Positions 48,402 through 64,000 of a DNA stretch of 64,000 nucleotides are shown here, in pieces. The notes below the pieces were generated by a model that saw only the letters and a program-made list of their open reading frames with translations, was not told the origin of the DNA and searched no databases. The position numbers and the translations under genes were made by a program. The stretch is from Macrocystis pyrifera. Lineage: Eukaryota; Sar; Phaeophyceae; Laminariales; Laminariaceae. Every line of letters starts with the position of its first letter. Position 1 is the stretch's first letter. The stretch lies in assembly GCA_031763025.1 (NCBI GenBank), contig JASSKH010000009.1, forward strand, positions 1,116,001-1,180,000, in the 5' to 3' direction.

Positions 48402-48721
48402 TGTTAAGTCCGTTGGGCTAAAGGTAAAAGGTTAACCAATCGCCTACCCAATCTAAGCCTCATAACACTCTCCCCCCCTGGAACGGACCGGGGGTAAACG
48501 GGTCGATGCGTGACACCAACACGCCGTTCCATTTTTCTGGGGATCCATAAGTATTTTTTCAGATTCTTGACATGAAGGAATTCACTTTTCTTTAAAAAGC
48601 GATTTCATGGTGGACGTGAGATTCGAACTCATGACCAACGACCCATGTCCTGCCGTCTTCGCCATTTGTCAAGGTCTTAGTCCGTCGGGCTAAAGATAAT
48701 CGCCCACCCAATCTCATAGCA
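48402..48721 (-). mobile_element. TRIM-1 complete copy
   Basis: Minus strand: 5' LTR (48667-48721, internally deleted), TGGCGAAGACGGCAGGAC primer site (48647-48664), interior with GAGTTCGAATCTCACGTCCA, polypurine tract next to the 3' LTR (48402-48467; TGTTATGAGGCTTAG to TTAACA). About 320 bp, no coding frame. The paired structure at 59731-60073 confirms the boundaries. Confidence 0.8.
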
Positions 48722-48769
48722 AAGGCTTATCAATAGAAGAAAGGAATAGAAAGAAATAAAATGAAAATC

Positions 48770-57307: not shown

Positions 57308-58319
57308 TGTTAGGATCAAGGTGGCGGGACACTTTGTATCCCTGGACAGGTCTGCCTTTTAAGTCGGTAATCGTTGGTACTCACGTGTGTTGCTTGCTTA
57401 GCTATAGAAGAAGAGCAGTTTTATTCCTTTCGTGCACGCGGAGACTGAGACCAAGCTCGTGCGTCTCTGGAAAACTCCTGGTTTTCCATCTAAGATACGC
57501 CTTCCAAGTACTACAAGTACGTTCCCAGTGACTGAACCCAGGTAATTACCGGGATTTAAACCTCATACAAAGCAGTATCATAACACTAGCCCACTCTGAC
57601 GAGCCGTATATGCAGAATTATGGGAAATTCGTGGGAACCCCGATTCCACGAACTAGAACATAACTCGAAGATGCGGCTCCTCAAAACCCACTCCCACACC
57701 TCTGAACGGCGAGGCAACGAAGCCGGCAAAGTACGTAAAAAAATAAAGGGAAGACCTAGCCTTCAGAGGCAGGAAGAAATCGTCAAAGAAAGCCATCGTC
57801 ATGCCGCCCGCACGGGGGGGGGGGGCAAGGAAGATGCATGGAAAAGCGAAAAGTGAGTACGGGAACGAAAAGAAATATAACACGGAAGACGGCAAAAACC
57901 ACCTAAACCCAGTCCACAACTCTGAAAGCGGTCCTGGGCCGCAATTGAGCGGCCGAGTGCCCAGACCAGTCCCGACAAAACAGTGACAAACAACGCAAAC
58001 CGACAAAAAAAAGCGGAAAGTCCTAAGCCGAAGACGCCACTTGTTAGGATCAAGGTGGCGGGACACTTCGTATTCCTGGACAGGCCTGCCTTTTAAGTCG
58101 GTAATCGTTGGTACTCACGTGTATTGCTTGCTTAGCTATAGAAGAAGAGCAGTTTTATTCCTTTCGTGCACGCGGAGACTGAGACCAAGCTCGTGCGTCT
58201 CTGGAAAACCCCTGGTTTTCCATCTAAGATACGCCTTCCAAGTACTACAAGTACGTTCCCAGTGACTGAACCCAGGTAATTACCGGGCTTTCAACCTCAT
58301 ACAAAGCAGTATCATAAAA
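57308..58319 (+). mobile_element. LTR-E element, complete non-autonomous copy
   Basis: Direct repeats of 278 bp at 57308-57585 and 58042-58319, both starting TGTTAGGATCAAGG; by eye about 8 mismatches. TGAG precedes the left and follows the right repeat, a probable target duplication. The 456-bp interior begins CTAGCCCACTCTGACGAGCC, contains a G-run and has no gag or pol frame. No TGG primer site adjoins the left LTR, so priming, if by tRNA, is unusual. Confidence 0.8.
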
Positions 58320-58560
58320 TGAGCTCGTTTTGCAAAACGTGCGGCTACATACCCGCCTGAGATCGAGAGACCGAAAGTGAGTCCCGATCGATGTATAATG
58401 CGTCATTCATTCATCGTCGCCCTAAAATGACCGCCAGAGATTGACACCTTCTTGTACAAATCAAACTTGAGTCCCGACGGACGCATCGTTGCTCACCAAA
58501 ACATGCAGTAAAGTTGAAGCTCATGCTGCACATCTTTTTGCCTAAAAAATAGTGACCAAT

Positions 58561-59475
58561 AATATGATACTGCCTTCAATGAGGTCGAAAGCCCGGTAAT
58601 TAGCTGGGTTCAGGCACTGGGAACGTATTTGTAATGCTTGGAAGGCGTACCTTAGGTGGAAAACCAGGAACTTTCCAGAGAGGCGCGAGCTTGGTCTCAG
58701 TCTCCGCGTGCACGAAAGGAATACAGCTGCTCTTCTTCCATCTCTAAGCAACCAAGACACGTGAGTACCAACGAATAACGACTTGATAGTCAAACCTGTC
58801 CAGGGATACAAAGTGTCCCGACTGCATGACCTTAACAAGTGGCACTCGATATACATATTTTATATATTCTTGTCGTTTTCCTGGACATTGGGGAGCGGTT
58901 TTGTCTGCTCGGTGTGTTCCTGGTTTCTTTTTTTTTCTCGGGCTGGGTTAGGGATGGCTTTTGCGTACTCTGTCCTGCCTACCCCCCCCGCTCAGTGTCG
59001 GGGCTGGTCTATGTACTCGGGCCACTCATTTGTGACCCAGGCCGCGTTTTCAGAGTTGTGGGCTGGGTTTACGTGGTTCTTGCCGTTTTCCGTGTTGTTT
59101 TTCTTCTCGTTTTTTGTATTCACTTTTCGCTTTTCCTTGCATCTTCCTCGCCTCCCCCCCCGTGCGGGTGGCATGGCGATGGCTTTCATTAAAGATTTCT
59201 TCCTGCCCTTTAAGGCTAGGTCTTCCTTTTATTTTATTACGTTCTTTGCCGGCTTCGTTGCCTTGCCGTTCAGAGGTGTGGGAGTGGGTTTTGAGGAGCC
59301 GCATCTTCGATTCATATTCTAGTTCGTGGAATCGGGGTTTCCATGAATTTTCCATAATTCTGCATATTATATACGGCTCATCAGAGTGGGCTAGTGCTAT
59401 GATGCTGCTTTCAATGAGGTTGAAAGCCCGGTAATTACCTGGGTTCAGGCACTGGGATCGTATTTGTAATACGTA
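58561..59475 (-). mobile_element. LTR-E element, inverted neighbour copy
   Basis: Minus strand: a truncated 5' LTR (59400-59475), an interior with TACGGCTCATCAGAGTGGGC and the GTGCGGGTGGCATGGCGATG segment, and a nearly full 3' LTR (58561-58837). It lies 241 bp from the plus-strand copy in opposite orientation. Confidence 0.75.
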
Positions 59476-59722: not shown

Positions 59723-60175
59723 TTACGGGGTGTTATGAGGCTTAGATTGGGCTGGTGATCGGTTAACCTTTTACCTTTAGCCCAACGGACTAAGGCCTTA
59801 ACAAATGGCGTCGACGGCAGGACATGGGTCGTTTTGGTCGTGAGTTCGAATCTCACGTCTACCATGAAATCGCTTTTTTAAGAGAAGCGAATTTCCTCAT
59901 GCCAAGAATCTGAAAAAATACTTCTGGATCCCCATAAATTGGAACCGCGTGTTGGTGTCACGCGTCGACCCGTATATCCGGTCCGTTCCAGGGGGGAGAG
60001 TGTTATGAGGCTTAGATTGGGCAGGCGATAGGTTAACCTTTTACCTTTAGCCCAACGGACTAAGACCTTAACACAGGGGACCGCAGTAAATGCGACCAAA
60101 TTTTGGTAGTAAAAATAGGTAAATATATAGGTATTTGCCTGTACCGTAGGTGCTATTTACTAGGGTCCCCCGTAA
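59723..60175. mobile_element. MITE-M copy interrupted by a TRIM
   Basis: The left terminus TTACGGGG (59723-59730) is separated from the rest (60074-60175: GGGGACCGCAGTAAATGCGA to AGGGTCCCCCGTAA) by the TRIM. TA lies outside both ends. Confidence 0.8.
59731..60073 (+). mobile_element. TRIM-1 reference copy (343 bp, 73-bp LTRs)
   Basis: LTRs 59731-59803 and 60001-60073 are both 73 bp, TG...CA, with 4 mismatches by eye. Two bases after the left LTR begins TGGCGTCGACGGCAGGAC (59806-59823), a primer-binding-site-like sequence. AGGGGGGAGAG (59990-60000) abuts the right LTR as a polypurine tract. The interior has no ORF. The LTR carries TAGCCCAACGGACTAAGGCC (A-box and D-arm-like) and the interior GTGAGTTCGAATCTCACGTC then TACCA (T-arm, B box, CCA). 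Confidence 0.88.
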
Positions 60176-60458: not shown

Positions 60459-60871
60459 AGTATGCTTGCCTTCCGACAAAATATATAGCGTAGATGGCGG
60501 CATATTGTTATTATGCTTGCCATCCGACAATGTGTAGTGTTGTTCTAAAAAAGACTATTGATAACAGAAAGTTGAAAACTTTCCAGAACAAAAGCGCGGC
60601 AGCATCATACGGCAAATCAACACTATTATTTTAATACATGCCAGGTATATTTTTGCAGGTATATATTTTTTTATAAAAATAAATTTGCAGTCTACAGCAG
60701 CAGCAGCAGTAACAACTGCCAAAATACCGATGTACAGCAAATAAATCGTTGCGAGGATCTGCCTCGCGCTCCGAGGACTAACCTACTACTAATACTGCTG
60801 CTGCTGCTTGCTGTAATACTATAATACCGAATGGGATATTACGATTTACGACAGTCATTGCGTTTTTAGCT

Positions 60872-60958
60872 TTTTTAGTACCGCAGTCCCGATTTGGGGA
60901 CAAACCAGTCTAATTCCAAGTGAATTGTCCTCAAAACAGGACTGCGGTACTAAAAGAG
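60872..60958. mobile_element. foldback MITE-F copy
   Basis: TTTTTAGTACCGCAGTCCCG faces GGACTGCGGTACTAAAAGAG around ACCAGTCTAATTCCAAGT. Confidence 0.78.
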
Positions 60959-63480: not shown

Positions 63481-63823
63481 TGTTATGAAGATCACCCTGG
63501 GCTGGGTAATTGATCGATATTTCACCCCTATAGCTCGGTAGGTGACACCTTCACATTTGGCGTCGTCGGCAGGACAAGGCCTCGGATCTCGCTTCAAACG
63601 TTTCTTTTATAGAAACGCTTGCGCGTGCGTCCGTAATAAATGAATCTCACTGATTCCCCAGAGGATGAAACGAAGCGGGTAGGTCAACGCGCGGCCGTAT
63701 ACAGTAACGACGTCCCAACGACTCCGCCGTTCAGAGAGGGGGAGTTTGTTACAAGGAATACCCTGGGCTGGGTATCTGATCCACATATTTTACCCCTATA
63801 GCTAGGTGGGTGTCACCCTTCCA
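63481..63823 (+). mobile_element. TRIM-2 complete copy (343 bp)
   Basis: Repeats 63481-63555 (TGTTATGAAGATCACCCTGG to CACCTTCACA) and 63747-63823 (TGTTACAAGGAATACCCTGG to CACCCTTCCA) flank an interior. TGGCGTCGTCGGCAGGAC (63558-63575) follows the left LTR, and AGAGAGGGGGAG precedes the right LTR. The LTR sequence is largely unrelated to TRIM-1, but the primer site is nearly identical. The LTR holds ATAGCTCGGTAGGTGACACC, a clear tRNA D-arm/A-box match. Confidence 0.8.
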
Positions 63824-63832
63824 CTTTTTATA

Positions 63833-63899
63833 AAGGTCTTAGTCCCTTGGGCTGAACGTAAAAGGTTAACTGATCGTCAACCCAAACTAAGCCTGATAA
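63833..63899 (-). mobile_element. TRIM-1 solo LTR
   Basis: AAGGTCTTAGTCCCTTGGGC, AAAAGGTTAACTGATCGTCA and AACTAAGCCTGATAA are the TRIM-1 LTR on the minus strand. There is no interior on either side. It lies 9 bp from TRIM-2. Confidence 0.7.
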
Positions 63900-64000
63900 T
63901 ATCCATATAGACACTGAGGAGTCCTGAGAGCTTGAGGGTATGTAAGGCCTGCGTGCCCAAACACGCACTTACGCAACAATGGAGGTCCACCCCATCCCAC

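What the first reader, a model, noticed from the sequence alone, without database searches (positions are those of the whole stretch)
59731..60073. TRIM elements carry a tRNA-like A box in the LTR and a B box plus CCA in the interior
Seen directly: in TRIM-1 the LTR end reads TAGCCCAACGGACTAAGGCC (D-arm and A-box pattern), then the primer site, then GTGAGTTCGAATCTCAC (T-arm and B box) and GTCTACCA. A-to-B start spacing is about 66 nt, long but near that of class II or intron-bearing tRNAs. TRIM-2 (63481-63823), with a different LTR, also has ATAGCTCGGTAGG there. LTR elements are normally Pol II units. A Pol III promoter spanning LTR and interior would give a transcript that starts inside the LTR, so these may be SINE/LTR hybrids.
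Basis: partly seen in the sequence, partly recalled or inferred. Interest (0 to 1): 0.78.

Follow-up and report, generated by a model that had tools for sequence, protein, structure and literature searches.

The report
Mini-retrotransposons with split tRNA-like promoter
Very small mobile elements in what is probably the giant kelp genome carry two tRNA-like promoter motifs, one inside the terminal repeat and one just after the site where copying starts; this resembles known tRNA-bearing mini-retrotransposons but with the promoter split across the repeat boundary, and whether it is used remains untested.

Summary
The window lies in a 537.4-Mb, 223-contig genome that fits the published giant kelp assembly. 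TRIM-1 and TRIM-2 are true TRIMs: 73-75 bp LTRs, tRNA-Ser primer site, purine tract, 4-bp target duplications in 15 of 35 scored copies. TRIM-1 has an A-like box at the LTR end and a tRNA 3'-half motif (GGTC-N5-TTCGAATC) after the primer site. The window's TRIM-2 has lost its B box, but 28 of 29 fetched relatives have one 46-50 nt after the A box (tRNA genes here: 43-45). A sample of 60 of 1116 primer sites gave two further families: G4 (A and B boxes) and G3 (B box, no A box).

Against promoter use: box columns are no better conserved within TRIM-2 than other columns; TRIM-1 and G4 have T5-T10 runs after the B box that should stop Pol III; the A box is also an arm of a whole-LTR hairpin; no tRNA-model hit.

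Verdict: a tRNA-derived split A/primer-site/B arrangement is real and recurrent; its use as a Pol III promoter is plausible but unshown. Closest known kind: Helenus/'TRIMp3', which has both boxes inside the LTR. New variant, not a SINE.

The parts
59731..59803 (+). TRIM-1 5' LTR (73 bp, TG...CA), self-complementary along its length
   Evidence: fold z -3.4 for 59732-59804
59769..59772 (+). TTTT just upstream of the A-like box; T4 in 8 of 8 TRIM-1 copies, T4 or longer in 23 of 30 TRIM-2 loci
59778..59789 (+). A-box-like TAGCCCAACGGA
   Evidence: present in 8 of 8 fetched TRIM-1 copies
59806..59823 (+). primer-binding site, complementary (one mismatch in this copy) to the last 15 nt of tRNA-Ser plus CCA
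   Evidence: (L073 tRNA-Ser AGA)
59836..59864 (+). tRNA 3'-half-like stretch: GGTC, T-arm GTGAGTTCGAATCTCAC (59840-59856, B-box core 59843-59853), acceptor-like GTCTACCA
59874..59879 (+). T6 run, possible Pol III terminator; T5 in 5 and T6 in 3 of 8 copies
59990..60000 (+). purine tract before the 3' LTR
60001..60073 (+). TRIM-1 3' LTR, holds the A-like box but no B box
63481..63555 (+). TRIM-2 5' LTR (75 bp) with A-like box TAGCTCGGTAGG at 63531-63542
63558..63575 (+). TRIM-2 primer-binding site, exact tRNA-Ser complement
63576..63592 (+). place of the B box in TRIM-2 relatives; decayed here
63747..63824 (+). TRIM-2 3' LTR (approximate end)
48600..48740 (-). 5' part of a second, decayed TRIM-1 copy: PBS-like at 48664 (3 mismatches), tRNA 3'-half motif 48620-48636

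Best explanation
These are TRIM-type LTR elements whose 5' end is a tRNA-derived type-2 Pol III promoter cut in two by the LTR boundary: A box near the LTR end, tRNA-Ser primer site where a tRNA has its anticodon arm, B box and T-arm remnant just inside. Shown: the anatomy, its recurrence, the LTR-type ends. Inferred: TFIIIC binds the pair at the 5' end only, because the 3' LTR has an A box but no B box, so Pol III would start about 18-20 nt before the A box, in mid-LTR. In TRIM-2, where the run after the B box is mostly T4 or less, transcription could read on into the 3' LTR and end at its TTTT or beyond, giving an RNA with a short terminal repeat that an autonomous LTR element's enzymes copy from a tRNA-Ser primer. 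In TRIM-1 and G4 the longer T-run should give mainly a short RNA, so full-length RNA there would need read-through or Pol II.
For: A/B pair in all 8 TRIM-1 and 28 of 30 TRIM-2 loci, spacing 63-65 and 46-50 against 43-45 in 11 tRNAs of this genome. Sample of 60 primer sites: B box with <=2 mismatches within 55 nt downstream in 20 of 60 against 5.7% of random window stretches and 7 of 60 further downstream in the same loci; A box with <=1 mismatch within 60 nt upstream in 27 of 60 against 5%. tRNA 3'-half motif reached by 5, 24 and 1 of 3000 shuffles in TRIM-1, TRIM-2 and G3. The hairpins around the B box differ between TRIM-1 and TRIM-2 while the GTTCGAATCTCAC core is shared, which fits a DNA-level motif. 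Interior beyond the first T-run has no T4 in 8 of 8 and 30 of 30 copies. LTR-type ends: 4-bp duplications in 15 of 35, 1116 exact primer sites, control 0.
Against: Within TRIM-2 (28 copies) A and B columns are not unusually conserved (49 of 214 and 110 of 211 windows as good or better). G3 has no A box (3 mismatches in 3 of 3). G4 does not match the tRNA 3'-half motif (947 of 3000 shuffles) and TRIM-1's B box alone is not significant (452 of 3000). A fifth set of interiors (L086, L089, L121) has no B box. T5-T6 (TRIM-1, 8 of 8) and T10 (G4 copy L142) directly after the B box look like terminators: 22 of 26 nuclear-type tRNA loci here have T5 or longer as first run, 6 of them exactly T5. No tRNA-model hit.
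Confidence: 0.4

Rival explanations
1. Ordinary Pol II-driven TRIMs. The A-like sequence is the 3' arm of a whole-LTR hairpin and the B-like sequence is an inherited tRNA relic or chance; neither is used.
For: LTRs of TRIM-1, TRIM-2 and G3 fold back on themselves with unrelated stem sequences: z -3.4 and -2.1 (window copies), -4.6, -3.0 (G3), -2.7 (TRIM-1), -2.9, -2.0, -2.1, -3.0 (TRIM-2). Box columns not specially conserved. T-runs after the B box. TATAAG near the LTR start in many TRIM-2 copies could be a Pol II TATA box.
Against: A hairpin arm need not read as a 12-of-12 A box (18 of 30 TRIM-2 loci); the B box is outside the LTR hairpin and recurs at the same side of the primer site in G3 and G4. 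RNAalifold on a mixed 12-sequence LTR alignment predicted no pairs, probably because the families misalign.
Confidence: 0.32
2. RNA-level tRNA mimic: the T-arm-like stretch beside the primer site helps recruit or anneal the tRNA-Ser primer, as proposed for the tRNA-like element near the HIV-1 primer site (recalled), rather than driving transcription.
For: It lies directly downstream of the primer site in four families and includes variable-loop-like GGTC that a B box does not need.
Against: The T-stem is intact in TRIM-1 only; in TRIM-2, G3 and G4 it is broken by sight while the B-box letters remain. It does not explain the A box at tRNA-like distance in TRIM-2.
Confidence: 0.14
3. The boxes and T-run form a short Pol III gene or a TFIIIC-only site: a ~110-nt RNA holding R-U5-primer site, or a chromatin boundary, with genomic RNA made by Pol II.
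For: T5-T10 runs 3-20 nt after the B box in TRIM-1 and G4 resemble this genome's tRNA terminators.
Against: TRIM-2 has mostly T3-T4 (27 of 30) and G3 copy L140 no T4 there; no known role for such an RNA.
Confidence: 0.14

Closest known systems
Helenus ('TRIMp3'; Kojima 2024, PMC10886601, parts 1-4 of 6 read)
   Same: TRIM under 1.3 kb with PBS, PPT, fixed-length target duplications and a tRNA-like A/B box sequence at the 5' end; animal families have 4-bp duplications as here; no functional tRNA.
   Different: In Helenus the tRNA-like sequence with both boxes lies inside the LTR; here the LTR holds only the A box and the B box is beyond the primer site. LTRs here are 73-79 bp in three families. 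The paper reports fungi, animals and plants; not stramenopiles in the parts read.
Cassandra (5S-bearing TRIM; as described in PMC10886601)
   Same: Pol III-type promoter in a TRIM; transcript starts in one LTR and ends in the other with a short repeat, the model used here for TRIM-2.
   Different: 5S rRNA-type promoter wholly inside the LTR, experimentally transcribed; here tRNA-type, split, untested.
SMART elements of grasses (PMC3281118, search listing and abstract start only)
   Same: Tiny LTR elements of about 300 bp.
   Different: No Pol III-type boxes mentioned in what I saw.
tRNA-derived SINEs (recalled)
   Same: A and B boxes, decayed tRNA structure.
   Different: No LTRs, no primer site, other mobilisation.

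Membership tests
TRIM | short direct LTRs at both ends, under 1 kb, no protein | tested here: met
   343-bp elements with 73-75 bp LTRs; G3 copy L146 about 443 bp with 79-bp LTRs
TRIM | primer site complementary to a tRNA and purine tract | tested here: met
   18-nt complement of tRNA-Ser 3' end plus CCA; purine tract by sight
TRIM | fixed-length target duplication | tested here: met
   exact 4 bp in 15 of 35 scored copies, 3 of 38 not scored; the window TRIM-1 copy has none
Helenus | tRNA-like sequence with A and B boxes inside the LTR | tested here: not met
   best B box within the LTR has 4 mismatches in 4 TRIM-1/2 copies, 3 in G4; G3 has a 2-mismatch GGTTATAAGCC at its LTR start, before any A box
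TRIMp3 | TRIM with a Pol III promoter from a small RNA gene | tested here: inconclusive
   boxes enriched and spaced as in tRNAs, transcription untested
TRIMp3 | transcribed by Pol III | not testable with these tools
   no RNA or occupancy data
tRNA-derived SINE | no LTRs; variable-length target duplications | tested here: not met
   LTRs and 4-bp duplications
functional tRNA gene | cloverleaf recognised by a tRNA finder | tested here: not met
   ARAGORN 0 in window and 38 loci; Rfam gathering 0 in window; 13 of 38 loci at E<=5 gave no tRNA hit, one tmRNA hit of 16.4 bits (cut-off 47) over 59804-59857

The most novel reading that the evidence does not exclude
Several families of one LTR-element pool in a brown alga (TRIM-1/2, G4, and G3 in part) have a tRNA promoter whose two halves are separated by the LTR boundary and primer site. 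Only the 5' copy of the LTR can then be a promoter and solo LTRs are inert, so the split would solve the problem of the second LTR and allow LTRs of about 75 bp; the geometry follows naturally if a Pol III transcript with a primer site in place of its anticodon arm was the founder.
Probability: 0.27. Interest if true: 0.75.

Novelty: new variant of a known kind. Interest (0 to 1): 0.52.

Why it matters
TRIMs with Pol III promoters are a recent proposal with one validated lineage (Cassandra, as stated in PMC10886601). If used, a promoter split by the LTR boundary would be a third layout, in a lineage far from plants, fungi and animals, would explain how an LTR of 73 bp can suffice, and would be directly testable in a species with a reference genome. 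It also offers a route from a tRNA-like transcript to an LTR element.

Tried and rejected
Functional tRNA gene: rejected. SINE by mobilisation: rejected. Copia as partner: end pieces of 7 Copia-type loci (of 150 listed) were compared; one gave an LTR pair with a 5-bp duplication (TATTT), none of the 7 5' pieces has a tRNA-Ser primer site within 4 mismatches, and no TRIM similarity beyond a 16-nt match of E 0.95 was found. Gypsy-type elements exist (150 listed) but their 5' ends could not be fetched. The autonomous partner is not identified. Common hairpin by alignment: RNAalifold gave 0 pairs, so the hairpin rests on single-sequence folds. Strong-stop insertions as a map of the RNA start: the tRNA-Ser joins seen run through whole LTRs, so they do not give the start site. 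Copy counts of the intact B-box stretch: not obtained; copy numbers are lower bounds, as only 40 candidates were scored in each.

Full report
Where it is. The window is G000:C223:1116001-1180000 of a 537,376,219-base assembly in 223 contigs. Passages of PMC10498591 (giant kelp, Macrocystis pyrifera) give 537 Mb, 35 scaffolds plus 188 contigs, and '# Contigs 223', so the genome is very probably that one; the tool does not name it.

What is there. TRIM-1 (59731-60073) has 73-bp LTRs, a primer site 2 nt inside, a purine tract and no coding capacity worth the name. TRIM-2 (63481-about 63824) has the same layout. At least 47 and 45 matches were listed for the two, with only 40 of 2008 and 40 of 2540 candidates scored, so these are lower bounds. 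Target duplications of exactly 4 bp flank 15 of 35 scored copies (5 of 8 TRIM-1, 10 of 27 TRIM-2, one of them TTTT); about 0.14 would be expected by chance; the window TRIM-1 copy has none and 3 of 38 loci could not be scored. The primer site is the complement of the 3' end of tRNA-Ser plus CCA: 39 places in the genome match the tRNA-Ser 3' end (control 0), ARAGORN calls L073 a tRNA-Ser(AGA), and the 18-nt primer site has 1116 exact sites (control 0).

The boxes. In 8 of 8 TRIM-1 copies the LTR end has TAGCCCAACGGA (1 mismatch) and the interior AGTTCGAATCT (2 mismatches), start spacing 63-65. Of 30 TRIM-2 loci, the window copy included, 18 have a perfect A box, 11 one mismatch and 1 two; a B-like box lies 46-50 nt downstream in 28 (18 with 0-1, 8 with 2, 2 with 3 mismatches) and is lost in the window copy and its nearest relative. 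Eleven tRNA genes of this genome have 43-45.

A less biased look. I fetched 60 of the 1116 primer-site places (chosen from the first 100 listed) with their flanks. They fall into TRIM-1, TRIM-2, G3 (L118, L120, L130), G4 (L097, L099, L100, L105, L110, L128), two sets of longer LTRs whose sequence becomes unrelated right after the primer site, chimeras, and singletons. G3 is a third short TRIM (79-bp LTRs in L146); G4 has LTRs of about 250 bp. B box with at most 2 mismatches within 55 nt after the primer site: 20 of 60, against 5.7% of 5000 random window stretches and 7 of 60 in the next stretch of the same loci; A box with at most 1 mismatch within 60 nt before: 27 of 60 against 5% (a 13-nt A-box form was also allowed, in the control too). 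Copies of a family are not independent. By family: G3 has the B box (3 of 3 within 2 mismatches) and no A box; G4 has an A box (5 of 6 within 1 mismatch) and a weak B box (4 of 6 within 2 mismatches). A further shared interior (L086, L089, L121) has none.

By single copies against 3000 shuffles: B box TRIM-1 452, TRIM-2 29, G3 88, G4 162; tRNA 3'-half motif GGTC-N5-TTCRANNC TRIM-1 5, TRIM-2 24, G3 1, G4 947. The latter motif was framed after inspection, though its letters are those of this genome's tRNA-Asn, -Lys and -Met genes. I conclude that TRIM-1, TRIM-2 and G3 hold a remnant of a tRNA 3' half next to the primer site; G4 is doubtful.

Results against a used promoter. Within TRIM-2 (28 copies, the two with decayed B box left out) mean column identity is 0.952 for the A box, 0.933 for the B box and 0.923 elsewhere; 49 of 214 and 110 of 211 windows do as well, so there is no sign of extra constraint after insertion. 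Pol III should stop at T-runs: of 26 nuclear-type tRNA loci (29 rows, 3 set aside by me as organellar) 22 have T5 or more as first run, 6 of them exactly T5. TRIM-1 has T5 in 5 and T6 in 3 of 8 copies within 45 nt after the B box; TRIM-2 has T3 in 7, T4 in 20 and T6-T12 in 3 of 30; G4 copy L142 has T10. Hence a full-length Pol III RNA is plausible for TRIM-2 and unlikely for TRIM-1 and G4. The rest of the interior has no T4 in 8 of 8 and 30 of 30 copies, but about 150 nt without T4 is not rare by chance (my estimate). LTRs of TRIM-1, TRIM-2 and G3 fold into whole-LTR hairpins, z -2.0 to -4.6 in 9 single-sequence folds, with the A-like box as part of the 3' arm; a joint alignment fold gave no pairs.

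How it would work. If Pol III is used, it would start 18-20 nt before the A box by analogy with tRNA genes (recalled), near LTR position 30 of TRIM-2; the RNA would carry the rest of the LTR, the primer site and the B box, and could end at the TTTT of the 3' LTR, giving a short repeat as described for Cassandra in PMC10886601. Because the B box is outside the LTR, the 3' LTR and solo LTRs would be silent. This step is inference.

Known kinds. Kojima 2024 (PMC10886601, parts 1-4 of 6 read) defines Helenus as TRIMs with a tRNA-like sequence inside the LTR and proposes 'TRIMp3' for TRIMs with Pol III promoters. The present elements fit TRIM but not the LTR-internal definition of Helenus. In searches for TRIMp3, Helenus with TRIM, tRNA and LTR, retrotransposon in miniature with tRNA, polymerase III and SINE, LTR retrotransposon with A box and B box and a related set I saw no listed paper on a promoter split between LTR and interior; listings and abstract starts only, except as stated. 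The Ectocarpus repeat paper (PMC12477816) has no whole-word 'TRIM' or 'tRNA' in its main text (passages).

Noticed in passing
L069-L078: Of 10 fetched places that match the tRNA-Ser 3' end, 9 carry LTR-like sequence of this pool (TRIM-2, G5 or G6 type, inverted) after the tRNA end, usually through CCA, with tRNA parts of varying length; they look like integrated LTR plus copied primer tRNA. Only L073 looks like a plain tRNA gene.
   Followed up: partly
L080, L085, L088, L089, L102, L111, L113, L115, L121-L124, L126, L136, L137 and others: Longer LTRs followed by exactly the 18-nt primer site and then mostly unrelated sequence, as if LTR plus 18 copied tRNA bases had integrated.
   Followed up: no
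L109 and L135: Chimeras: LTR of another family joined at the primer site to a TRIM-1 interior; suggests template switching at the primer site.
   Followed up: no
G000:C193:13898369-13899207: Tandem TRIM-1 array with shared LTRs, spacing 269 bp.
   Followed up: no
63827-63904: Inverted TRIM-1-like LTR directly beside the TRIM-2 3' end.
   Followed up: no
60870-60958 (L001 2636-2732): Long inverted repeat, 88% complementary; weak MIR5380 match (43.5 bits, cut-off 150), probably a small inverted-repeat element.
   Followed up: no
57308-59472: Nested direct and inverted copies of longer LTR-like repeats resembling the G6 LTR ends.
   Followed up: no
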